Shown here one piece after another: positions 5,088 through 43,940 of a stretch of 64,000 bases of DNA. The stretch's first letter is position 1. Each line of letters opens with the position of its first letter. Under the pieces are notes generated by a model. It was not told the DNA's origin. It saw only the letters and a program-made list of their open reading frames with translations, and did not search any database. The translations under genes and the position numbers were made by a program. Source of the DNA: Devosia riboflavina (GTDB lineage: Bacteria; Pseudomonadota; Alphaproteobacteria; Rhizobiales; Devosiaceae); the NCBI RefSeq assembly GCF_000743575.1, contig NZ_JQGC01000007.1:186001-250000 (forward strand), read 5' to 3'.

Positions 5088-5128
5088 GTCGTTGACTCTT
5101 AATGGTGTCTTCACCATTGTCCTCTCGT

Positions 5129-5292
5129 CCATGGTCCCCGCGAGGGGATAATAGGGAAGCCGGTGGGGGAGAGATCCCCAGTCCGACGCTGCCCCCGCAA
5201 CTGTAAGCGGAGACGAAGCCTCTTTGTCCACTGGCCGGTTCGGCTGGGAAGGCGAGGTTTCGGTTCGATCCGCAAGCCAGGAGACCTGCCAT
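5129..5292 (+). ncRNA. Cobalamin (B12) riboswitch
   Basis: The aptamer shows the class's conserved blocks in order: ATGGTCCC at the start, AGGGAAGCCGGTG, the near-invariant CCCCCGCAACTGTAAGCGG, GTCCACTGG, TGGGAAGGC and the closing AGCCAGGAGACCTGCC. It lies about 210 bases ahead of the TonB receptor gene and in the same orientation. Adenosylcobalamin-type ligands would be expected to lower receptor expression. No T-tract terminator is visible between it and the start codon, so translational control is more likely. Boundaries are accurate to a few bases. Confidence 0.96.
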
Positions 5293-5347
5293 GGAAACGG
5301 AATCCATTTCAGGCTGATCGGGCGGATCGGCGAGAGGACCCAAATCG

Positions 5348-34446: not shown

Positions 34447-35670
34447 TCATGAGCCGCGTTGTGCCGCGATATAGGCATCGAGCGTGTCGGGATCAAAATC
34501 CGTCCCGTCGAAGAAGCCATCCGGCCCCAAGGTCAGGTGTCCGCCGATGGCGCCAACTTCGGTCGGTTCACGCAAGGCGCCTTCAATCTTGCTGCTGGCG
34601 CCCGGCACGGGCATGCCCATGCCGGAAAGGGCGGCTCGATAAAGATCGGGCCGATAGCTGGCTGCAGCTTTCTGCGCGTTTTGCGGCTTATGGGCCACCT
34701 GGCCCCAGCGCACCATCTGCGAATAGAACCAGAGGGCGTGGCTCACCCAAGGGAAGTTGGCGGCGCGGGAATAGGGCACGAAGAAATCCGGCATGAACCG
34801 TTCGACGCCCGGCTCGAATTGCAGTTTTCCGGTCACGGCGCGCAGGATGAGATCGGCGTCTATACCCAGCCGATCCTCGCGGGCCAGCATGGCGGCGAGG
34901 GCCATGTGGTTGGCCGGGTCTTCGCACCAGCGCGCGGCGCGGGTTGCGGCGCGCAGCAGGGCGGCGAGCTGTTCGGGAAAGCGCTCGGCCCATTGCAGGC
35001 GCGTGCCCAACACCTTGTCCGGGCTCATCTGCCAGATCTGGCCCTTAGTGGTGACAATCCGACCGACGCCGCGCGCCACGGCGACCGAGCCGAAGGGTTC
35101 ACCGACGCAAAATCCGTCGGTGCGCTTGGCCGCGAGCGCATCGGCCTGCAAAGGCGGGGGCACGATGACGATGTCGACGTCGCGGTCCGGGTCGATCCCT
35201 GAAGCGGCCAGCCAATAGCGCAAGGCATAGTTATGGGCGCTTTCGGGATGCACCACGGCGAGGCGCAGGTGTGGCTCGCCGGAGCGCGCACGATCCGCGA
35301 TGACTTTTCGGAGGGCCGCACCAACAGGGCCGGGCGCGCCGTCCTCGGGTGCGCCGGCCTCTGCCATTTTATCCCAGATGGCGTTGGACATGGTGATGGC
35401 AGCGCCGCCGAGACCGAGCGCCATGGGGGCAATCACCGCCGCGTCGAGCGGGGTCAGGCCGAGATTGGCACTGAGGGGCATGGGTCCGAGCATATGGGCC
35501 ACGTCGAGATGGCCGATGGCGACGCGGTCGCGAATATTGGCCCAGGAGGTCTCGCGCACGAGGTTGAGGTGCAGGCCCTCGCTCTCGGCAAAGCCGAATT
35601 CTTCGGCGGCGAGCAGCACCGCGCTATCGAGCAGGGGCACATATCCGGCTGATATCTGCGTCAGGCCCAT
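34447..35670 (-). CDS. nasS: Nitrate/nitrite sensor NasS (NrtA-like)
   Basis: In known systems NasS binds nitrate or nitrite and holds or releases the antiterminator NasT. The protein is an NrtA/CmpA-like periplasmic-binding fold without a signal peptide (it begins MGLTQISAGYVPLLDSAVLL), consistent with a cytoplasmic sensor. Family segments include LDVAHMLGPMPLSANLGLTP, NYALRYWLAASGIDPDRDV, DGFCVGEPFG and FFVPYSRAANFPWVSHALWF. Length is 407. The start at 35670 has no fused extension and follows nasT by 16 bases. It ends 280 bases before nirB. Confidence 0.93.
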   Translation of the reverse strand: MGLTQISAGYVPLLDSAVLLAAEEFGFAESEGLHLNLVRETSWANIRDRVAIGHLDVAHMLGPMPLSANLGLTPLDAAVIAPMALGLGGAAITMSNAIWDKMAEAGAPEDGAPGPVGAALRKVIADRARSGEPHLRLAVVHPESAHNYALRYWLAASGIDPDRDVDIVIVPPPLQADALAAKRTDGFCVGEPFGSVAVARGVGRIVTTKGQIWQMSPDKVLGTRLQWAERFPEQLAALLRAATRAARWCEDPANHMALAAMLAREDRLGIDADLILRAVTGKLQFEPGVERFMPDFFVPYSRAANFPWVSHALWFYSQMVRWGQVAHKPQNAQKAAASYRPDLYRAALSGMGMPVPGASSKIEGALREPTEVGAIGGHLTLGPDGFFDGTDFDPDTLDAYIAAQRGS

Positions 35671-35686
35671 GAGCAAAAATCCTTCT

Positions 35687-36274
35687 TCATGGTCCCAAAA
35701 GCTCCGCGGCCGTGACGACCGCCTGGGCAATTTCGACGATCTTGCGGTTCTGGTTCATGGCGGTGGTCCGCAGCAACGCATAGGCGGCATCTTCGGAAAG
35801 GCCGCGCGATGTCATCAGAATACCCTTGGCCTTGTCGATGACCTTGCGCCCCTGCAATTCGGAGCGGGCGGCTTCTAGTTCATCGCGCAGCCGCGAAAAG
35901 GCGCGAAAACGGACGATGGCCATGTCGAGGATTGGCTTGATGCGGTCCTTGCGTAGCCCGTCCACCACATAGGCGGAAACGCCGGCATCGACCGCCGCCT
36001 CGATTTCGGCAGGGTCGGATTTGTCGACGAACATGGCGATCGGTCGCTTGATGGTGCGGCTCAGGGCGAAGAAATGCTCCAGCACGTCGCGATTGGGATT
36101 TTCGAGGTCGATGATGACCACATCGGGCGCGATCTCGCCGATGCGCTGCGCGACATCCTCGATATCGGTAATGACGCGCACCGAAGCATGGCCGGCCTCG
36201 CGCAGCCCGGCCTCGATGATCGAGGCGCGGATCGCGTTGTCGTCAATCACCAGAATCGAAAGCGACTCTGTCAT
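35687..36274 (-). CDS. nasT: ANTAR-domain antiterminator NasT
   Basis: NasT binds leader RNA and allows transcription through the terminator before nitrate/nitrite genes when NasS releases it. A pseudo-receiver (1-120; LVIDDNAIRASII, VVIIDLENPNRDVL) is joined by a helical linker to the ANTAR domain (about 130-192), with the typical GRKVIDKAKGILMTSRGLSEDAAYALLRTTAMNQNRKIVEIAQ. Length (195) is standard. The start at 36274 (MTESLSILVIDD) begins the receiver fold. It is upstream of nasS in one operon, and its presumed RNA target is the nirB leader. Confidence 0.95.
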   Translation of the reverse strand: MTESLSILVIDDNAIRASIIEAGLREAGHASVRVITDIEDVAQRIGEIAPDVVIIDLENPNRDVLEHFFALSRTIKRPIAMFVDKSDPAEIEAAVDAGVSAYVVDGLRKDRIKPILDMAIVRFRAFSRLRDELEAARSELQGRKVIDKAKGILMTSRGLSEDAAYALLRTTAMNQNRKIVEIAQAVVTAAELLGP

Positions 36275-36303
36275 GGACCTCAACTGCAAGGATGTCGGCG
36301 GCT

Positions 36304-36320
36304 CAGTCACTGCATGACTG
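36304..36320. promoter_or_regulatory. Small dyad upstream of nasT
   Basis: CAGTCA-CTGCA-TGACTG is a perfect 6+5+6 inverted repeat, 29 bases before the nasT start and 36 bases from the ribokinase stop. It could be an operator or a weak hairpin; no regulator is suggested by sequence. Confidence 0.25.
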
Positions 36321-36355: not shown

Positions 36356-37252
36356 CTATGCCATTTGGATCGCGTCGACCTCGGCTTTGGTGGGAATGGC
36401 CGGTTGCGCGCCGGCACTGCAGCAGGCGAGGCTTCCGGCAATGGCGGCGCGCTGCATGGCCTCTTCGAGCGATAGGCCGGCATCGAGCCCGGCGGCGAGA
36501 TAGCCGCAAAAAGTATCGCCTGCGCCAACCGTGTCGACCGGTTCGACCCGGTGAGCCGGTACGGAAAAACGGCCTTGCGGGGTTCGCGCATAGGCGCCTT
36601 CCGGCCCGAGCGTGACGACAATGGTGCGTCCGGTTCTTTGCACCCAAGCGGTCGCGGCGGCGTCAAGGTCGGTTATGGGGCGGCCCGTCAGGAACGAAAA
36701 TTCGGTCTCGTTGGCGACGACAATATCGGCCAGCGGCGCGAGATCGGCTGTGTCGGCAAGGAAAGGGGCAGTGTTGAGCACACTGCGGGCACCCTTGCTG
36801 CGCGCGATTTCGAGCGCCCGGCGGGTCGCCGCCTGTGGTATTTCCTGTTGCACCAGCAGCGTATCACTTGCCGTCAGGTTCCCGAGATGCCGGTCGGCAT
36901 CGGTGGCACTGATCGTGCCATTGGCGCCGGGCAGCACGGCGATGACGTTTTCGCCAGCGGCATCGACGAAGATCATGGCAATGCCAGTGGCGGTTTCGGC
37001 TTTGCTGAGGCCCGAAAGGTCGACGCCACTATCCTTCAGAAGATGCAGCGCCATCTCGGCAAAGGCATCGTCGCCGACTGCCGAAACGTGCCGAACCTCG
37101 GCGCCCGCACGGCGCGCCGCGAGGGCCTGATTGGCACCCTTGCCACCCGGCGCCATGGAAAAGGTGCCGCCTGCGACCGTCTCGCCGGGCCGCGGCAGGC
37201 GCGTCACCGTGCCGACCTGATCGAGATTGGTGGAGCCGAAAACGGTGATCAT
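36356..37252 (-). CDS. rbsK: Ribokinase (PfkB family)
   Basis: This phosphorylates ribose or a similar sugar with ATP. PfkB features: N-terminal GSTNLDQVGTVTRLPRPGETV, PGGKGANQALAARRAGAEV (residues about 35-53), NETEFSFLTG, and the second signature DTVGAGDTFCGYLAAGL with catalytic aspartate (about 250). Length is 298. Its start overlaps the riboflavin kinase stop by ATGA, so it is translated with a flavin gene. That pairing is unusual: it may phosphorylate a ribose-containing product released by the pathway, or simply be a hitchhiker. No ribose transporter is adjacent. Confidence 0.93.
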   Translation of the reverse strand: MITVFGSTNLDQVGTVTRLPRPGETVAGGTFSMAPGGKGANQALAARRAGAEVRHVSAVGDDAFAEMALHLLKDSGVDLSGLSKAETATGIAMIFVDAAGENVIAVLPGANGTISATDADRHLGNLTASDTLLVQQEIPQAATRRALEIARSKGARSVLNTAPFLADTADLAPLADIVVANETEFSFLTGRPITDLDAAATAWVQRTGRTIVVTLGPEGAYARTPQGRFSVPAHRVEPVDTVGAGDTFCGYLAAGLDAGLSLEEAMQRAAIAGSLACCSAGAQPAIPTKAEVDAIQMA

Positions 37253-37692
37253 GGCAGAAGTCCAGTCAGGGCATGGTGTGCAAGCATGGCGCGCGATTGG
37301 GCAACGTCGCGCTCGGTCTGCCCGGTGAGGTCGTCGAGCCCGGAAAAGCGGCGCATGTCGCGCAGCCTGGTCAAAAGGCAGATGTTCAGTTCGTGGCCAT
37401 AGAGCGTGCCGTCGAAGTCATGGATGTAGATTTCGACCCGTCGCTCCTTCACGTCGTCAAAGGTGGGGTTGTTGCCCACGCTCGCCGTGGCGCCATGGTG
37501 CGTCGTTTGGCCCGGAAGCCAGACGATGCAGGAATAGACCCCATCCGGCGGCAGCTCTACGCCCGGCGCTATTGAGAGATTGGCCGTGGGGAAACCAAGC
37601 TTGCGGCCGCGCTTGTCGCCATGGATGACGCAGCCGGAAAGTCTGATCCCCAATGTCCCGGGGCCGAAATCAGGATGCCCGGGACAGTCCAA
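37249..37692 (-). CDS. Stand-alone riboflavin kinase domain protein
   Basis: This would phosphorylate riboflavin to FMN. The whole recognisable sequence is a riboflavin kinase barrel: SGCVIHGDKRGRKLGFPTANLSI with the ATP/flavin loop and PTAN, GVYSCIVWLPG, ATASVGNNPTFDD, VEIYIHDFDGTLYG and LTRLRDMRRFSGLDDL. The FAD synthetase half of normal bacterial RibF is missing. There is no good ATG: TTG at 37692 overlaps the flavin reductase end by about 23 bases, and TTG at 37653 would start just after it. Either start is uncertain. A frameshifted fusion with the reductase is an alternative. Context implies FMN supply. Confidence 0.8.
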   Translation of the reverse strand: MDCPGHPDFGPGTLGIRLSGCVIHGDKRGRKLGFPTANLSIAPGVELPPDGVYSCIVWLPGQTTHHGATASVGNNPTFDDVKERRVEIYIHDFDGTLYGHELNICLLTRLRDMRRFSGLDDLTGQTERDVAQSRAMLAHHALTGLLP

Positions 37693-38158
37693 GATACTGG
37701 CTCTGGTGGAAGACGAGGGGGCGAATGTCGGGGAAAAGCGTCGTGTTCCTGATTTCGAACAGGATGATTTCATGGTCGCCACCCGAGAGCCTGTCGGCAA
37801 TGGTGCAATCGAGCCAAAGCGTGGCGCCGGGAATGAAGCGGGCGGTTTCCTCGCCTGATTCCAGCGCCACATCACGAAAACGGTCGCCATTGCGGGATGA
37901 AAGCTGCCGGGACAGCGGCTCCTGATCGGCGCCCAGAATGCTGAGGCCGATGCGGGGCAGGGCATTGAGTTTGGGCCAGGTGCTCGATTGGCGGGCAATG
38001 CAGACCGAAACCAGCGGCGGTTCCAGCGAAACGGTGCTGAACGAATTGACTGCCATGCCGACCGGCTCGTTTCCATTGTGTCCGCACATGGCGACAACGC
38101 CAGTTGGAAACAGCGAAAATGCCCGCCGCAGGGCCAGGTTTGCCTCCGCGCTATTCAA
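37670..38158 (-). CDS. Flavin reductase (NADH:FMN oxidoreductase, DIM6/NTAB family)
   Basis: This supplies reduced FMN to a two-component monooxygenase. The split-barrel family pattern is seen: LRRAFSLFPTGVVAMCGHNGNEPVGMAVNSFSTVSLEPPLVSVCI (about 10-55), GLSILGADQEPLSRQLS, and the C-terminal GDHEIILFEIRNT. Length is 162, standard for the reductase component. The start is TTG at 38158, with AGGAGG eight bases upstream; this is convincing despite the rare codon. It is first in the operon reductase - riboflavin kinase - ribokinase, divergent from the PadR regulator, and 730 bases from the monooxygenase gene. Confidence 0.92.
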   Translation of the reverse strand: MNSAEANLALRRAFSLFPTGVVAMCGHNGNEPVGMAVNSFSTVSLEPPLVSVCIARQSSTWPKLNALPRIGLSILGADQEPLSRQLSSRNGDRFRDVALESGEETARFIPGATLWLDCTIADRLSGGDHEIILFEIRNTTLFPDIRPLVFHQSQYLGLSRAS

Positions 38159-38173
38159 GATTTCCTCCTCGAG

Positions 38174-38190
38174 TAGTCAATTTTGAATAT
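38174..38190 (+). promoter_or_regulatory. Shared 17-bp promoter motif, copy 1
   Basis: TAGTCAATTTTGAATAT lies in the divergent reductase/PadR promoter. The minus strand at 43089-43105 carries TAGTCAATTTTGATTAT, identical at 16 of 17 positions, ahead of the importer. A common operator, possibly for the PadR protein, is inferred. Confidence 0.6.
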
Positions 38191-38259
38191 TTGAAATGAA
38201 GCTATGTCATTTGCTAGGGAATGACAAGAAATTTGCCGAGGGGAAGGCACCAGAAAACC

Positions 38260-38859
38260 ATGTCCAACATCACCCGCCTCGTTGTTTTGGGCGCCGTGCG
38301 CCAGTTCGAGCCCGTGCACGGCTACTTCCTCCGTCGCGAGCTGATGACCTGGCATGTGGACGAATGGGCGAACATCCAGCCCGGCTCGATCTACAATGCG
38401 CTGAAGTCGCTCAAGCAGGACGGCTATATCGAGGAAGCGGGCACGGAAGCAGCCGGCAAGCGGCCCGAGCGCACCATTTATCGCACCACGCCGCAGGGCG
38501 TCGTCGAGCTGATGCGCATGCTCCGCCAGACCCTCTGGACTGTCGAAACTTTCGATACCAAACCCACCATGGCGCTGACCTCGTTCATGTTTCTCCTCAG
38601 TCGCTCGGAAGTGGTGGCGGCGCTGAAATTCCGCATGACCGAGATCGACGCAAAGATTGCTAGCAACGGTTTTGACATTGCCGATGTCGGTCATTCGACA
38701 ACGACGCCTGCCTATGTGCGCGAGATCTTCGAGCTGTCCTCGCTGCGCCTACGCGCCGAGCAGGAATGGGTAAAAGGGCTCTTCGAACGGATCACGGCTG
38801 GCAATTATGTCTTTGCCGGCGATCCGGGTTCGCGCGTCGAACCGGTCGAGCAGAAGTAG
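38260..38859 (+). CDS. PadR-family transcriptional regulator
   Basis: This is probably a ligand-responsive repressor of the flavin/monooxygenase genes. The winged HTH is in residues 1-80: TRLVVLGAVRQFEPVHGYFLRREL and IQPGSIYNALKSLKQDGYIEE, followed by the typical PadR wing KRPERTIYRTTPQG. The C-terminal half (ELMRMLRQTLWT to EQEWVKGLFERI) is the helical dimerisation part. Length is 199. The start at 38260 is chosen for GGGAAGG upstream and for the family N-terminus; an ATG at 38221 is possible. It is divergent from the reductase operon and convergent with the monooxygenase. Confidence 0.93.
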   Translation: MSNITRLVVLGAVRQFEPVHGYFLRRELMTWHVDEWANIQPGSIYNALKSLKQDGYIEEAGTEAAGKRPERTIYRTTPQGVVELMRMLRQTLWTVETFDTKPTMALTSFMFLLSRSEVVAALKFRMTEIDAKIASNGFDIADVGHSTTTPAYVREIFELSSLRLRAEQEWVKGLFERITAGNYVFAGDPGSRVEPVEQK

Positions 38860-38887: not shown

Positions 38888-40234
38888 TTAGAGCGTGCGA
38901 TACCCGGCGCCCGGATGGTCGGCGCTCAGGATCGGGCTCGGCGTGCCGACAAGGCGTTCGCGTAGCGTATCGCCTTCATAGTCCGAAGCAGCGACGCCGC
39001 GGGCGCGTAGGATCGGCATCACCTGTTCGACGAAATCCTTGGTGGAGGCCGGCTGGATCAGCGGCGTGAACAGGAAGCCATCGATGTCGGTCTTTTCGGC
39101 GAGATCGATCATGATGTCGGCGATGTCTTCGGGCGTACCGACATAGGGATTGGTGCGAACGCCATGGGCGTGCCAATCCTTGAGCACTTCGCCAACCGTT
39201 TTGTCGCCGAAGCGCGCGATCTGGGTCTGCGAGAGTTCGGTATGGAGATCGCTCATCTTGGTCGCGGGATCAAAGGATGAGAGATCGAGGCCGGTGAACC
39301 AGGCATAGGAGGCGACGGCCACTTCGGGGGTCTGGGCGTCGAGCAGTTCCTGATGCTTGCGGCGGGCTTCTTCCTTGGTCGGTGCGACGACGCAGGAGAA
39401 AGCGCTCATCAGCTTGATCGAATTGGGGTCGCGACCATTGGCGACTGCTTCGTCGCGGATGGATTTGACCTGGCCCGCCAGCTTTTCGGCCGTGCCGCCG
39501 CCGAGGAAAATGCATTCGCCATGCTTGCCGCCGAACTGCTTGCCGCGATCCGACGAACCTGCCTGGAAGAGCACCGGCGTGCCTTGGGGCGAATAGGATG
39601 AATTGCCGAAGCCGTGCGAGCGGAAATAGGGCCCGTCATGAGAAATGCGGTGCACCTTGTCCGGATTGGCGTAGCGACCAGCCTTGTTGCGCTCCAGCGC
39701 GTCGCGTTCCCAGGCGCCCTCAAAGAGCTTGTAGACGAGCTCCATGAAATCGTCGGCCATGTTGTAGCGCTCGTCATGGGCCACCATGGGCACGCCAAAA
39801 GCGGCGACGGCGGTTTCGGCTGTGCCCGTCGTCACCACGTTCCAGCCGATGCGGCCCTTGGAAAGGTGGTCGAGGCTCTGCATGCGGCGGGCGAAGGCAT
39901 AGGGCTGCTCGAGGAGGGTCGAGCCGGTCATGACAATGCCGAGCTTTTCAGTCGAAGCGATGATGGCAGCGCCGACAATGGCGGGGTCGAGGCGCGGCAG
40001 GTCGAGGCCTTCGGTGTCGCAGATGTCCGGGCGCGTTCCCTTCACATCGGCCCAACCCCAGGCGTCGGCGAGGAACAGGAAGTCGAGCTTGGCGTCCTCG
40101 CACATTTTTGCGACATCGACCCAATAGTCGAGCGTATCGAAATTGTGCCGCTCGCTGTCAGGGTGGCGCCAGGTGGACGTGCCGGAGTCATTGGTCTGGG
40201 CGTTTTCAAACAGCCCAAAGCGCAGCTTCTTCAT
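38888..40234 (-). CDS. FMN-dependent monooxygenase, NtaA/SnaA/DszA family
   Basis: This bacterial-luciferase-fold enzyme oxidises an organic substrate with O2 and reduced FMN. N-terminal MKKLRFGLFENAQ, FDTLDYWVDVAKMCEDAKLDFLFLADA (about 32-60), LSKGRIGWNVVTTGTAETAVAAFG (about 124-147) and PVLFQAGSSDRGKQF (about 232) match the family, which includes sulfone, aminopolycarboxylate and pristinamycin oxygenases. Length is 448. It is downstream of importer subunits with a 39-base gap and probably last in their operon. The reductase on the next transcript is the likely FMNH2 source. Substrate not determinable. Confidence 0.92.
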   Translation of the reverse strand: MKKLRFGLFENAQTNDSGTSTWRHPDSERHNFDTLDYWVDVAKMCEDAKLDFLFLADAWGWADVKGTRPDICDTEGLDLPRLDPAIVGAAIIASTEKLGIVMTGSTLLEQPYAFARRMQSLDHLSKGRIGWNVVTTGTAETAVAAFGVPMVAHDERYNMADDFMELVYKLFEGAWERDALERNKAGRYANPDKVHRISHDGPYFRSHGFGNSSYSPQGTPVLFQAGSSDRGKQFGGKHGECIFLGGGTAEKLAGQVKSIRDEAVANGRDPNSIKLMSAFSCVVAPTKEEARRKHQELLDAQTPEVAVASYAWFTGLDLSSFDPATKMSDLHTELSQTQIARFGDKTVGEVLKDWHAHGVRTNPYVGTPEDIADIMIDLAEKTDIDGFLFTPLIQPASTKDFVEQVMPILRARGVAASDYEGDTLRERLVGTPSPILSADHPGAGYRTL

Positions 40235-40273: not shown

Positions 40274-41092
40274 TCAGCGCCCGATCACATCCGCGTCGCT
40301 CCACCAGAGGACACGCTTGCGCAGAAGGGCCAGCAGCGACACCAGCACCACGCCGAGAAGGCAGAGGAGGGCAATGCTCGCCCAGGTGACGGGCAGGTCG
40401 GCCTGCGCCGCAGAAATGGTAACCAGGGAGCCGAGGCCCGCCTGCTGACCGGCCGCCACGAATTCGGCGACGGCGGCACCAACCACAGCCAGCGGCATGG
40501 CGATACGGAGCCCCGCAAAGACGAAGGGCATGCAGCCGGGCAGTCTCAGATCACGAAACGTTTCCCAACGACTGGCATGGAGCGTCTTGAAGACGTCGAG
40601 TGCCTTCTGGTCGACATCGCGCAGGCCGGCCAGCGAATTGACCAGCATGGGGAAGAAGACTACGAGCCCGGTGACGATGTACTTTGGCAGCATGCCGAAG
40701 CCGAAGGCAACGACCAGAGCCGGGGCAATGGCGACGACCGGGGTGACCATGATCACAACGATCAGCGGCATGATCGCCTTTTCGATGATCGGCAGTTCGG
40801 ACATGGCCACGGCGAGGAGGAAGCCGAAGAGAATGCCCGCGCCGGCGCCGATGACGATTTCCTGGCAGGTTACCAGCATATTGGCCCAGTACATATGCGG
40901 GTCGCCGGCCATGCTGTTGCCGATGGATTCCAGCGTGGGCAGCACATAGGGATTGTTCAGCGCCACGACCTGCCAGAGCACGGCGACCACGACGAAGGTT
41001 ATGGCGGGCGGCAGCCAGTCGCCTGCGAGGCGCGCCATGGGCGAGGCGGTCTTTGCCTTGGGGGCGACGTCGGCTGCGATCGAACTAGACAT
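40274..41092 (-). CDS. SsuC/TauC-type ABC permease
   Basis: This is the membrane subunit of a nitrate/sulfonate/taurine-type importer. The hydrophobic core has the family patterns MLVTCQEIVIGAGAGILFGFLLAVAMSELP, VVIMVTPVVAIAPALVVAFGFG and the coupling-loop region LHASRWETFRDLRLPGCMPFVFAGLRIAMPLAVVG. Length is 272, normal. It overlaps the ATPase by 8 bases. The monooxygenase and flavin reductase around it suggest an aromatic or organosulfur substrate, which is inferred from context only. Confidence 0.93.
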   Translation of the reverse strand: MSSSIAADVAPKAKTASPMARLAGDWLPPAITFVVVAVLWQVVALNNPYVLPTLESIGNSMAGDPHMYWANMLVTCQEIVIGAGAGILFGFLLAVAMSELPIIEKAIMPLIVVIMVTPVVAIAPALVVAFGFGMLPKYIVTGLVVFFPMLVNSLAGLRDVDQKALDVFKTLHASRWETFRDLRLPGCMPFVFAGLRIAMPLAVVGAAVAEFVAAGQQAGLGSLVTISAAQADLPVTWASIALLCLLGVVLVSLLALLRKRVLWWSDADVIGR

Positions 41093-41921
41093 GGGCAGCC
41101 TCCATCACCTTGCGCAGGGCGTTGCGGACATAACCTTCGAGATCGCGGAAGGCGTCGGTGGCATAAAGTGCTTCATTGCGCGGCCGGGGCAGGTCGACGT
41201 CGATGATTTCGGCGATGCGGCCGGGATGGGCCGCCATCAGCACGATGCGGTCGGACAGGATGATGGCTTCGGGCACCGAATGGGTGACGAAGAGCACCGA
41301 TTTCTGGTTCGATTGCCAGAAATCGAGCAGGCCCATGCGCTGCTGGTCGCGGTTCATTTCGTCGAGCGCGGAGAACGGCTCGTCCATGAGCAGGATTTCG
41401 GGATCGAACACGAAGGCGCGGGCAATGGCGGCGCGCTGCTGCATGCCCCCCGAAAGCTGGGCGGGATAGCGGTCGATCGCCTTGCCGAGGCCAAAATTGG
41501 TCAGGATTTCCTTGGGATCACGTAGCTTGCGCCCGGCATTGGCGCCCGGATTGATGGAGATAGGCAGGCTGACATTGTCGAGAATGGTGCGCCAGGGCAG
41601 CAGGGCCGGCGATTGCGGCACAAGGCCGATGGCCTTTTCGCGCGAGGCCTCGCGCGCCGACTTGCCATTGATCGACACCTTGCCGCCATCGGCATCCGAT
41701 AGGCCGGCGACCACCTTGAGCAGGGTGGACTTGCCGCAGCCCGACGGGCCGATCAGCGAGACAAATTCGCCCTTGCGGATGGTGAGCGAGACGCCGTTGA
41801 GCACGGTGACACGGGCTTCGTCCGGGCCGAAGCTCTTGGTGATATTGGCGACCTCTACCCCGGCCTCGCCGGGGTATCGATCACTGGATGCTTGAGCAGG
41901 TGCAGACATTGTCCGGTTCAC
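41085..41921 (-). CDS. SsuB/TauB-type ABC ATPase
   Basis: This energises the importer. It has Walker [10 protein letters not shown] (about 59-67), Q-loop LVPQSPALLPWRTILDNV, signature LSGGMQQRAAIARAF, Walker B ILLMDEPFSALDEMNR and H-loop VTHSVPEAI, all typical of the nitrate/sulfonate class. Length is 278. It overlaps the binding-protein gene by four bases and the permease by eight, so the three subunits form one coupled operon. Confidence 0.95.
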   Translation of the reverse strand: MNRTMSAPAQASSDRYPGEAGVEVANITKSFGPDEARVTVLNGVSLTIRKGEFVSLIGPSGCGKSTLLKVVAGLSDADGGKVSINGKSAREASREKAIGLVPQSPALLPWRTILDNVSLPISINPGANAGRKLRDPKEILTNFGLGKAIDRYPAQLSGGMQQRAAIARAFVFDPEILLMDEPFSALDEMNRDQQRMGLLDFWQSNQKSVLFVTHSVPEAIILSDRIVLMAAHPGRIAEIIDVDLPRPRNEALYATDAFRDLEGYVRNALRKVMEAAHV

Positions 41922-43036
41922 TTTTCCGGCCAGATCAGCTTGCCGTCCTGATAGAGCGAGGCAACGAGATCAGGATCCATCATGGCTTCGATGGCGGGCG
42001 GGTTCTTCAGCCCGCCGAACTTCTGGGCCATGTCATATTCGCTCTGCCAGCCGGCGACGGTCTGCACGCCCGGAGGCCCAAAGGTGCTCGAACGCACCCA
42101 TTCGGATTCGACGCCCCAGGTGCGGGCCTGCTGCTCACGCGGGAAGGCTGAGCCCTGATTGTTGTCGGCGGCAAGCTGGCTGATCATGTCGACGCACTTT
42201 TCTTCCTCGGCGAGGCAGAATTCGAGCGCCTTGAGGCTCGCGCGCATGAAGTCGGCAGCGGCCTCGCGATGCTCGGCGAGGAACTTGCTGTTCACTTCCA
42301 TGACGTTGTAGGTGCCCGGCAGCCCGAGATCGGACGGCAGGAATTCACTGAAGGGCAGGTTCATGGCCTTGAGCGTCTGGGGCTGGTTTGAGGCATAGCC
42401 GACAATGGCATCGACCTGGCCGCGGGTGACGACCGTGGGGTCGTAGTTCGTCATCTTGATCAGTTCGACCTTGGAGACATCGACGCCGGCGGCATCGAGC
42501 ATGGCAAGAGCGATGGGGGTGATGTTGATGAAGTAGCCGAGGCGCTTGCCTTCGAGATCCTTCAAACTCTTCACCGCTTCATTGGCAAAGATCGAGAAGG
42601 GCGACGTGCTGCCATAGGTGGCGACGGCGGTCAGGTTTCGGCTATTGGCGGCGGCCAGCATGACGTCGGAGGCCGAACCGAGCGCAGTGAACTGGGCCTG
42701 GCCGGACGAAACCAGCAATTGGCCATTGCCGCCGGCGGCGTTGATTTCGACCGTGAGGCAGAGGGCATCGAAATAGCCCAGTTCCTTGGCGAGGAACACA
42801 TCCACCTGGCCGGCGCTGGCCGAATAGCCGTAACCGGAAATGTAGGTGATCGTGCCCGCGGCCTTGTTGCGATCGCACTCTTCCTGGGAGACGAGTACGT
42901 TTTCCGGGAGTTCGTCGGCAGCGCGCGCCACCTGGGCCGAGAAACCGGCCATGGCGAGGGCGATCATGGCGGTGCCCGAGAAAAGACGGCCGAGCGAGGA
43001 CGTACCCCGCCCATGGGGTGTAGGTCTAAGCGACAA
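41918..43036 (-). CDS. NMT1/SsuA-like periplasmic binding protein
   Basis: This is the substrate receptor of the importer. After a leader with a hydrophobic stretch (LFSGTAMIALAMAGFSAQVARAADEL) the mature protein has the NMT1/THI5-like pattern: GQVDVFLAKELGYFDALCLTVEINAAGGNGQLLVSSGQAQF, KSLKDLEGKRLGYF and TRGQVDAIVGYASNQP. A TTG start at 43036 with AGGGAGG five bases upstream is preferred; GTG 43054 and ATG 43096 are in frame, but the last lies within the promoter motif. Length is 372 from the TTG. The substrate may be a sulfonate, nitrile or aromatic amide. Confidence 0.88.
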   Translation of the reverse strand: MSLRPTPHGRGTSSLGRLFSGTAMIALAMAGFSAQVARAADELPENVLVSQEECDRNKAAGTITYISGYGYSASAGQVDVFLAKELGYFDALCLTVEINAAGGNGQLLVSSGQAQFTALGSASDVMLAAANSRNLTAVATYGSTSPFSIFANEAVKSLKDLEGKRLGYFINITPIALAMLDAAGVDVSKVELIKMTNYDPTVVTRGQVDAIVGYASNQPQTLKAMNLPFSEFLPSDLGLPGTYNVMEVNSKFLAEHREAAADFMRASLKALEFCLAEEEKCVDMISQLAADNNQGSAFPREQQARTWGVESEWVRSSTFGPPGVQTVAGWQSEYDMAQKFGGLKNPPAIEAMMDPDLVASLYQDGKLIWPEK

Positions 43037-43088
43037 GAAAACCTCCCTAGTCACGTCCCATTCCTCCAACGGGACGCACATTCCTAGC

Positions 43089-43105
43089 ATAATCAAAATT
43101 GACTA
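43089..43105 (-). promoter_or_regulatory. Shared 17-bp promoter motif, copy 2
   Basis: On the minus strand TAGTCAATTTTGATTAT, one mismatch from the copy at 38174-38190, stands about 50 bases before the preferred binding-protein start. This ties the importer/monooxygenase operon and the flavin operon to one regulator. Confidence 0.6.
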
Positions 43106-43266: not shown

Positions 43267-43521
43267 ATGCCTGCCGTTACCATTCGTAACCTTTCAGAAG
43301 AGGCCCATCGCGCTCTCAAGGCGCGCGCGGCCGGACATGGCCGCAGCGCGGAAGCGGAGATGCGCAATATTCTGGAAGCGGCGGTTCGGCCTGCAGACCG
43401 CGTCCGTATCGGCTCGGCGCTTTCAGCATTGAGCCAGAATGCGGGCCTGACCAATGCCGACTTCGAGGCGGTGGAGCTGAACCGAGACAAAATGCCGGCC
43501 CTGCCGCTGAGCTTTGAATGA
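43267..43521 (+). CDS. Antitoxin of a VapBC/FitAB-type pair
   Basis: This 84-residue protein has the FitA-like ribbon-helix-helix N-terminus: VTIRNLSEEAHRALKARAAGHGRSAEAEMRNILEAAV (about 4-40). The C-terminal segment (ADFEAVELNRDKMPALPLSFE) would wrap the toxin. It should bind the dyad upstream and neutralise the PIN toxin, whose start overlaps its stop by ATGA. The ordinary start at 43267 follows GGAGTTG. Confidence 0.92.
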   Translation: MPAVTIRNLSEEAHRALKARAAGHGRSAEAEMRNILEAAVRPADRVRIGSALSALSQNAGLTNADFEAVELNRDKMPALPLSFE

Positions 43522-43940
43522 TCCTGCTCGATACCAATGTTGTTTCCGAGGGCATGAAGCCCCAGCCCGACCCGGCCGTGCGCGACTGGCTTGATGCCCA
43601 GGCCGCGGAAACGCTCTATCTTTCGAGCGTTACGGTGGCGGAACTGCTGTACGGCATCGGGGTCTTGCCGGATGGGCAGCGCAAGACAAGGCTCACTGCG
43701 GCGGTCGAAGGCCTGATTGGTCTGTTTGAAGGCCGCATCCTCGCCTTCGACTCTGACGCAGCACGGCGCTATGCGGATATCGCGGTCGCCGCGCGCAGGG
43801 CGGGGAGGGGCTTTCCAACGCCCGATGGCTACATCGCAGCCATGGCCGTCGCTCACGGTTTTGCGGTTGCGACCCGCGATGCCAGCGCCTTTGCGGCTGC
43901 CGACGTTCCAACGATCGATCCCTGGAAAACCGGCGCCTAG
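43518..43940 (+). CDS. PIN-domain toxin of a VapBC/FitAB-type pair
   Basis: This putative ribonuclease is held inactive by the upstream antitoxin. The PIN acidic residues are visible: Asp5 in LDTNVVSE, Glu in TVAELLYG (about 42), Asp in FPTPDGYIAA (about 103) and the final Asp in ATRDASAF (about 121). Length is 140. It is encoded immediately after, and overlapping, the antitoxin. Its stop overlaps that of the convergent HAD gene by four bases. Chromosomal toxin-antitoxin pairs of this kind are common, and no mobile-element genes flank it. Confidence 0.93.
   Translation: MILLDTNVVSEGMKPQPDPAVRDWLDAQAAETLYLSSVTVAELLYGIGVLPDGQRKTRLTAAVEGLIGLFEGRILAFDSDAARRYADIAVAARRAGRGFPTPDGYIAAMAVAHGFAVATRDASAFAAADVPTIDPWKTGA

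What the first reader, a model, noticed from the sequence alone, without database searches (positions are those of the whole stretch)
37249..38158. Flavin reductase, stand-alone riboflavin kinase and ribokinase in one coupled operon
The reductase (TTG start with AGGAGG) is followed by a protein that is only the riboflavin-kinase half of RibF, then a ribokinase coupled by ATGA. Beside them lie an FMN-dependent monooxygenase and an SsuABC-type importer. This looks like a dedicated FMN-supply module for a two-component monooxygenase, with FMN made and reduced locally. Monofunctional riboflavin kinase is unusual in bacteria, and the ribokinase partner is unexplained. A programmed or accidental frameshift joining reductase and kinase is the main alternative.
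Basis: partly seen in the sequence, partly recalled or inferred. Interest (0 to 1): 0.68.

Follow-up and report, generated by a model that had tools for sequence, protein, structure and literature searches.

The report
Vitamin B2-degrading operon of Devosia riboflavina
These genes let a soil bacterium split vitamin B2 (riboflavin) into lumichrome and the sugar ribose; this is an already published pathway, very probably in this very species, so the arrangement is explained rather than new.

Summary
Flavin reductase (TTG start, AGGAGG), a riboflavin kinase without a FAD-synthetase half, and an ATGA-coupled ribokinase are there. But the neighbouring "FMN-dependent monooxygenase" is riboflavin lyase RcaE (825 bits over 447 residues to PDB 5w48; next PDB match 306). 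Verdict: already known. A frameshift fusion is not supported: in 28 of 28 loci with an adjacent kinase the reductase has its own stop, and the kinase frame is +0, +1 or +2. A full RibF is encoded elsewhere. Small and apparently new: the palindrome TCAA-N2-TTGA lies before the importer in 33 of 34 loci and beside the divergent PadR gene in 22 of 34 (56 sites in 17 kb against 3 in 531 kb), a candidate PadR operator shared by two phyla.

The parts
41918..43054 (-). ABC importer substrate-binding protein (NMT1 type), candidate riboflavin-binding protein
   Evidence: PF09084 E 2.1e-32; best PDB relative 3ix1, a pyrimidine-binding protein (ThiY by recall), 52 bits; next to RcaE in 34 of 34 loci. The GTG start at 43054 behind GGAGG is my inference; the longest frame starts at 43096.
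41085..41921 (-). ABC importer ATPase
   Evidence: PF00005; 34 of 34 loci
40274..41092 (-). ABC importer permease
   Evidence: PF00528; 34 of 34 loci
38888..40234 (-). RcaE, riboflavin lyase/monooxygenase
   Evidence: 825 bits to PDB 5w48 Riboflavin Lyase over residues 1-447
38221..38859 (+). divergent PadR-family regulator
   Evidence: PF03551 E 2.4e-12; divergent between lyase and reductase in 34 of 34 loci
38177..38186 (.). palindrome TCAA-N2-TTGA, candidate PadR operator before the reductase
43093..43102 (.). palindrome TCAA-N2-TTGA, candidate PadR operator before the importer
37670..38158 (-). flavin reductase (RcaB type), supplying FMNH2
   Evidence: PF01613 E 1.6e-31
37249..37692 (-). 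stand-alone riboflavin kinase (RcaA type); TTG start inside the reductase gene is inferred
   Evidence: PF01687 E 6e-35; TTG at offset -23 in the window and 6 Devosia loci, ATG at the same offset in 2 Agromyces loci
36356..37252 (-). ribokinase (RcaD type), ATGA overlap with the kinase
   Evidence: PF00294 E 2.1e-64; TIGR02152 ribokinase 284.7 bits, just under the 299.65 cut-off; best PDB match a ribokinase, 1gqt, 177 bits

Best explanation
This is the riboflavin catabolic (rca-type) cluster, very probably of Devosia riboflavina itself. The ABC importer brings in riboflavin (inferred). The stand-alone kinase turns part of it into FMN, the flavin reductase makes FMNH2, and RcaE uses FMNH2 and O2 to cut riboflavin into lumichrome and ribose (in print for the homologues, inferred here from sequence). 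The ribokinase makes ribose 5-phosphate, and lumichrome is left over, since no ring-hydroxylating dioxygenase of the Lum type was found in the genome (inferred). The divergent PadR protein probably represses the importer-lyase and reductase-kinase-ribokinase units through TCAA-N2-TTGA sites until flavin is present (inferred).
For: Lyase: 825 bits to Riboflavin Lyase against 306 for the next PDB match. Importer, lyase, divergent PadR and reductase occur together in 34 of 34 loci from Devosiaceae and actinobacteria, with the kinase beside the reductase in 28 of 34. The ribokinase sits in two different positions (after the kinase in 2 loci, between lyase and PadR in 14, the latter 37-41% identical to the window's), which suggests independent recruitment to the same task. 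Genome of 5,052,234 bases in 113 contigs equals the values given for D. riboflavina IFO13584 in PMC6981132 (passages). Riboflavin cleavage in D. riboflavina and M. maritypicum is stated in PMC12934955 (passages); the M. maritypicum reaction in PMC12746152 (Introduction and Discussion).
Against: No biochemistry was done here. The two primary papers (Xu 2016, Kanazawa 2018) were not held, so the gene-by-gene match to the published clusters could not be read off. The importer's substrate rests on neighbourhood alone. The ribokinase is just below NCBI's curated cut-off, and in 18 of 34 loci no ribokinase was found in the DNA fetched around the lyase (that DNA is short in L004, L006 and L051-L068). 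Six of 34 loci have no kinase beside the reductase. PMC4183881 gives 5.3 Mb, not 5.05 Mb, for the same strain, with the same 113 contigs (whole text).
Confidence: 0.97

Rival explanations
1. A dedicated FMN-supply module for a monooxygenase with some other substrate (sulfonate, dimethyl sulfide, nitrilotriacetate and the like).
For: The lyase lies in the NtaA/DmoA subfamily TIGR03860, and the importer in the sulfonate/nitrate type.
Against: The match to riboflavin lyase (825 bits) is far above the alkane (306), dimethyl-sulfide (292), hexachlorobenzene (255), dibenzothiophene (219), YtnJ (214), NTA (200) and EDTA (168) enzymes. It would not explain the ribokinase.
Confidence: 0.02
2. Reductase and kinase are one product joined by a programmed or accidental frameshift.
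For: The window's kinase frame overlaps the reductase with no ATG or GTG within 60 bases of the junction, only TTG at -23 and +16; its junction TCC TGA T resembles a known +1 shift site (recalled). In 2 Leifsonia loci (L018, L019) only a CTG was found near the junction.
Against: In 28 of 28 loci with an adjacent kinase the reductase ends at its own stop, and the kinase frame relative to it is +0 in 5, +1 in 12 and +2 in 11, so no single shift would serve. A start codon lies at the same offset, -23, in 7 Devosia loci (TTG) and 2 Agromyces loci (ATG). The TTG is made by the uncommon Leu codon CTT (74 of 1125 Leu codons); three Devosiaceae with a similar reductase end but other kinase starts (L009, L051, L052) have CTC, CTG, CTC there.
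Confidence: 0.03
3. The main role is to make lumichrome as a signal rather than to eat ribose. (Does not exclude the best explanation.)
For: PMC12746152 raises this (Discussion read); no lumichrome-degrading Rieske dioxygenase was found in G000 (PF00848).
Against: An importer in 34 of 34 loci and a ribokinase in 16 of 34 point to use of the ribose.
Confidence: 0.2

Closest known systems
rca cluster of Microbacterium maritypicum G10 (Xu 2016; not held, cited)
   Same: Lyase 825 bits to PDB 5w48 (that this chain is the M. maritypicum enzyme is recalled). Kinase, reductase, ribokinase and lyase as RcaA, RcaB, RcaD, RcaE are recalled.
   Different: Gene order could not be compared, as the paper is not held. 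In the actinobacterial loci seen here the ribokinase, where found, lies between lyase and PadR, not after the kinase.
Riboflavin monooxygenase of Devosia riboflavina (Kanazawa 2018; not held, citing passages)
   Same: Same species by assembly size and contig number. The abstract as I recall it names clustered monooxygenase, flavin reductase, ribokinase and flavokinase, induced by riboflavin.
   Different: No difference could be tested, the paper not being held. I do not recall a PadR operator or the kinase start being described there.
RibXY riboflavin importer (PMC4418817, passages)
   Same: Permease and substrate-binding protein of the sulfonate/nitrate/taurine importer type.
   Different: RibXY orthologues were accepted there by an FMN riboswitch; none was found in this window at gathering score. 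No sequence comparison with RibY was made.
RibF, bifunctional riboflavin kinase/FAD synthetase
   Same: Same kinase domain PF01687.
   Different: No FAD_syn half; 36% identical to the genome's own RibF kinase domain, against 43-59% to the cluster kinases other than those of L003 and L004 (80% and 71%).
RibR, stand-alone riboflavin kinase of Bacillus subtilis (recalled)
   Same: Monofunctional bacterial kinase near FMN-dependent monooxygenases.
   Different: Sulfur-related operon; not compared here.

Membership tests
Riboflavin catabolic (rca) cluster | RcaE riboflavin lyase | tested here: met
   825 bits, residues 1-447, to 5w48
Riboflavin catabolic (rca) cluster | Flavin reductase, riboflavin kinase and ribokinase in the cluster | tested here: met
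   PF01613, PF01687, PF00294; ribokinase TIGR02152 284.7 bits, slightly below its 299.65 cut-off
Riboflavin catabolic (rca) cluster | Lumichrome and ribose formed from riboflavin | not testable with these tools
   Enzyme assay needed; cleavage reported for D. riboflavina and M. maritypicum (passage)
Stand-alone riboflavin kinase | Flavokinase domain without FAD synthetase half, and a full RibF elsewhere | tested here: met
RibXY(Z) riboflavin importer | FMN riboswitch upstream | tested here: not met
   Rfam scan of the window at gathering score gave one match, a cobalamin riboswitch
RibXY(Z) riboflavin importer | Riboflavin transport | not testable with these tools
   Called only a candidate riboflavin importer, from neighbourhood
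Programmed frameshift fusion of reductase and kinase | Conserved frame offset and no separate start | tested here: not met
   Frames +0/+1/+2 in 5/12/11 of 28 loci; start at -23 shared by 9. L018 and L019 have only CTG near the junction.
Complete lumichrome (lum) degradation | Rieske dioxygenase alpha subunit (LumC), taken to be PF00848 | tested here: not met
   No match in G000; 1 of 14 genomes (Nocardioides astragali) has one, best fitting glycine betaine monooxygenase GbcA (below cut-off) with GbcB-, SHMT- and SoxB-type neighbours

The most novel reading that the evidence does not exclude
A flavin-responsive PadR repressor, kept with the cluster across Devosiaceae and Actinomycetota, binds TCAA-N2-TTGA palindromes before the importer-lyase and reductase-kinase units, so that one regulator gates import, cofactor supply and destruction of vitamin B2.
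Probability: 0.72. Interest if true: 0.35.

Novelty: already known. Interest (0 to 1): 0.2.

Why it matters
It removes a puzzle: the stand-alone kinase and unexplained ribokinase are the cofactor-supply and ribose-salvage arms of vitamin B2 breakdown, very probably in the organism named for it. The survey adds a testable regulator-operator pair shared by two phyla, a conserved non-ATG kinase start nested in the reductase gene, and RcaE relatives in two Roseobacter-group MAGs where the other cluster genes were not found.

Tried and rejected
FMN supply for another monooxygenase: rejected on the score gap. Frameshift fusion: not supported. Hidden FAD-synthetase half: the DNA upstream of the kinase encodes the reductase, and RibF is elsewhere. 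FMN riboswitch control: the only match in the window was a cobalamin riboswitch. A genome holding both rca and lum genes: PF00848 searched in 14 genomes, G000 and those of 13 of the 17 loci (not L004, L008, L011, L016); the single match, in Nocardioides astragali, fits GbcA best, with GbcB-, formaldehyde dehydrogenase-, SHMT- and SoxB-type neighbours, so it is not lum. That LumC belongs to PF00848 is assumed. A PadR regulator with riboflavin and lumichrome in print: 4 papers listed, by title none about such a regulator (listing only).

Operator, results against it: a first, looser motif AANTTGACTA has 6 copies in G000, 2 in the cluster, and its reversed control has 20, so it is not specific genome-wide. 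TAGTCAANNTTGA has 3 copies, 2 of them in the cluster; its control has 2. TCAANNTTGA has 2 matches in the window, and 10 of 100 shuffles had as many; the case rests on their place and on the 34 loci. The motif was found by eye in the same regions in which it was then counted, and the loci are related. Controls: spacer 1, 0 inside and 5 outside; spacer 3, 0 and 0; AACTNNAGTT, 0 and 3; GACTNNAGTC, 0 and 2. In 12 of 34 loci it is missing from the divergent region, and in L055 from both regions.

Errors of mine: the kinase start list used a wrong frame for some loci and was replaced. Survey counts may be low, as at most 4 candidates a genome were scored there.

Rows left out of the 34-locus counts: L015 and L016 (only the lyase matched; L016 is a 3.7 kb contig), L001, L002, L020-L032, L036-L050 (short or repeat fetches of genomes already counted or refetched), L033-L035.

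Full report
Observation. The three genes are real and as described. The reductase (37670-38158, -) starts at TTG behind AGGAGG. The kinase frame ends at 37249 and has PF01687 (E 6e-35) but no FAD_syn match. The ribokinase (36356-37252) overlaps the kinase stop as ATGA. Upstream lie a PadR gene on the other strand, a luciferase-like monooxygenase and a three-gene ABC importer.

Identity. The monooxygenase matches PDB 5w48, Riboflavin Lyase, with 825 bits over residues 1-447; the next PDB matches are an alkane monooxygenase (306) and dimethyl-sulfide monooxygenase (292). Lyase, flavin reductase, riboflavin kinase and ribokinase are the set of the riboflavin catabolic cluster of Microbacterium maritypicum. 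PMC12746152 (Introduction, part 1 of 2 of Methods and Results, and Discussion read) says that five genes including RcaE turn riboflavin into ribose and lumichrome. The assignments of RcaA, RcaB and RcaD to kinase, reductase and ribokinase are recalled from Xu et al. 2016, which was not held.

Organism. G000 has 5,052,234 bases in 113 contigs. PMC6981132 lists D. riboflavina IFO13584 with 5,052,234 and 113 (passage); PMC4183881 (whole text) gives 113 contigs but 5.3 Mb. So the window is very probably from D. riboflavina. PMC12934955 (passages) states that the only characterized bacterial pathways from riboflavin to lumichrome are from M. maritypicum and D. riboflavina, citing Kanazawa et al. 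[quoted passage not shown] I recall its abstract as naming clustered monooxygenase, flavin reductase, ribokinase and flavokinase, induced by riboflavin.

Conservation. At E <= 1e-150, RcaE relatives were found in 13 of 136 genomes of the window's family, G000 included; in 14 of 398 sampled from the family of Leifsonia shinshuensis, that genome included; and in 1 of 341 of the family of Nocardioides astragali, which is that genome itself. The ribokinase lies after the kinase in 2 and between lyase and PadR in 14; in 18 none was found in the DNA fetched, at most 8 kb from the lyase start and less in L004, L006 and L051-L068. In the lyase tree a branch with support 100/98 puts ten Devosiaceae rows with the 21 actinobacterial ones and leaves the other three (L053-L055) with the two Roseobacter-group rows, so the Devosiaceae lyases are not one group. 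Patchy presence across two phyla suggests horizontal transfer; this is inference. PMC12934955 reports the cluster as specific to Actinomycetota and Devosia (passage); L015 and L016 are lyase relatives (62%) outside these, without the other genes found.

Kinase and fusion. The genome has a separate full RibF with FAD_syn and Flavokinase. The cluster kinase is 36% identical to that RibF's kinase domain, 80% and 71% to the kinases of L003 and L004, and 43-59% to those of the other loci, across two phyla. In 28 of 28 loci with an adjacent kinase the reductase ends at its own stop; the kinase frame relative to it is +0 in 5, +1 in 12 and +2 in 11. The only start codon near the junction shared by the window and L003-L008 is a TTG 23 bases before the end of the reductase stop; two Agromyces loci have ATG at that offset. 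The window has a second TTG at +16. The shared TTG is formed by the Leu codon CTT, which makes up 74 of 1125 Leu codons in five genes of these seven loci, the junction codons included; L009, L051 and L052, with other kinase starts, have CTC, CTG and CTC there. 7 of 7 against 0 of 3 gives 1/120 by my arithmetic, but the loci share ancestry. In L018 and L019 no ATG, GTG or TTG lies near the junction, only CTG in a CTGA overlap; this remains unexplained.

Regulation. TCAA-N2-TTGA occurs 56 times in the 17,084 bases of the PadR-reductase and importer-upstream regions of the 34 loci and 3 times in the other 531,307 bases; it is upstream of the importer in 33 of 34 and in the divergent region in 22 of 34. 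Four controls (spacers 1 and 3, two scrambled palindromes) gave 0 inside. In the window its only two copies are at 38177-38186 and 43093-43102, a number that 10 of 100 shuffles reached. The longer form TAGTCAANNTTGA occurs 3 times in G000, 2 of them here, its reversed control twice; the looser AANTTGACTA is not specific genome-wide. That PadR binds the palindrome, and that flavin is the ligand, is inference.

Fate of lumichrome. PF00848 has no match in G000 nor in 12 of the 13 other genomes searched; the one match, in N. astragali, fits glycine betaine monooxygenase best. This agrees with the statement in PMC12746152 that no strain has rcaE colocalized with lum genes.

Verdict. Known system, very probably in its known organism; interest low. 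The regulator-operator pair and the nested TTG start are small additions. For the regulator one print search was made; none was made for the start, and the two primary papers could not be read.

Noticed in passing
38177-38186 and 43093-43102; 34 loci: Palindrome TCAA-N2-TTGA, candidate PadR operator: 56 sites in 17 kb of regulatory DNA against 3 in 531 kb.
   Followed up: partly
L018, L019 reductase-kinase junction: Leifsonia kinases have no ATG, GTG or TTG near the junction, only CTG in a CTGA overlap where the Leifsonia loci L010 and L011 have ATGA; possible CTG start.
   Followed up: no
L015:8004-9365, L016:2253-3593: RcaE relatives (62% identity) in Octadecabacter and Planktomarina MAGs, other cluster genes not found; L015's neighbours include an FMO-like flavoprotein and a class II aldolase.
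   Followed up: partly
L060, L062-L066: Six actinobacterial clusters have no kinase found beside the reductase.
   Followed up: no
5115-5307 (+): Cobalamin riboswitch, 129 bits.
   Followed up: no
34447-36310 (-): NMT1_2 protein and ANTAR response regulator (NasS/NasT-like by recall) directly after the ribokinase; the same order in L003.
   Followed up: no
43518-43940 (+): PIN-domain protein (PF01850), VapC-like toxin candidate just beyond the importer.
   Followed up: no
G000:C5:67996-68008: The only other copy of TAGTCAANNTTGA in the genome; its neighbours were not looked at.
   Followed up: no
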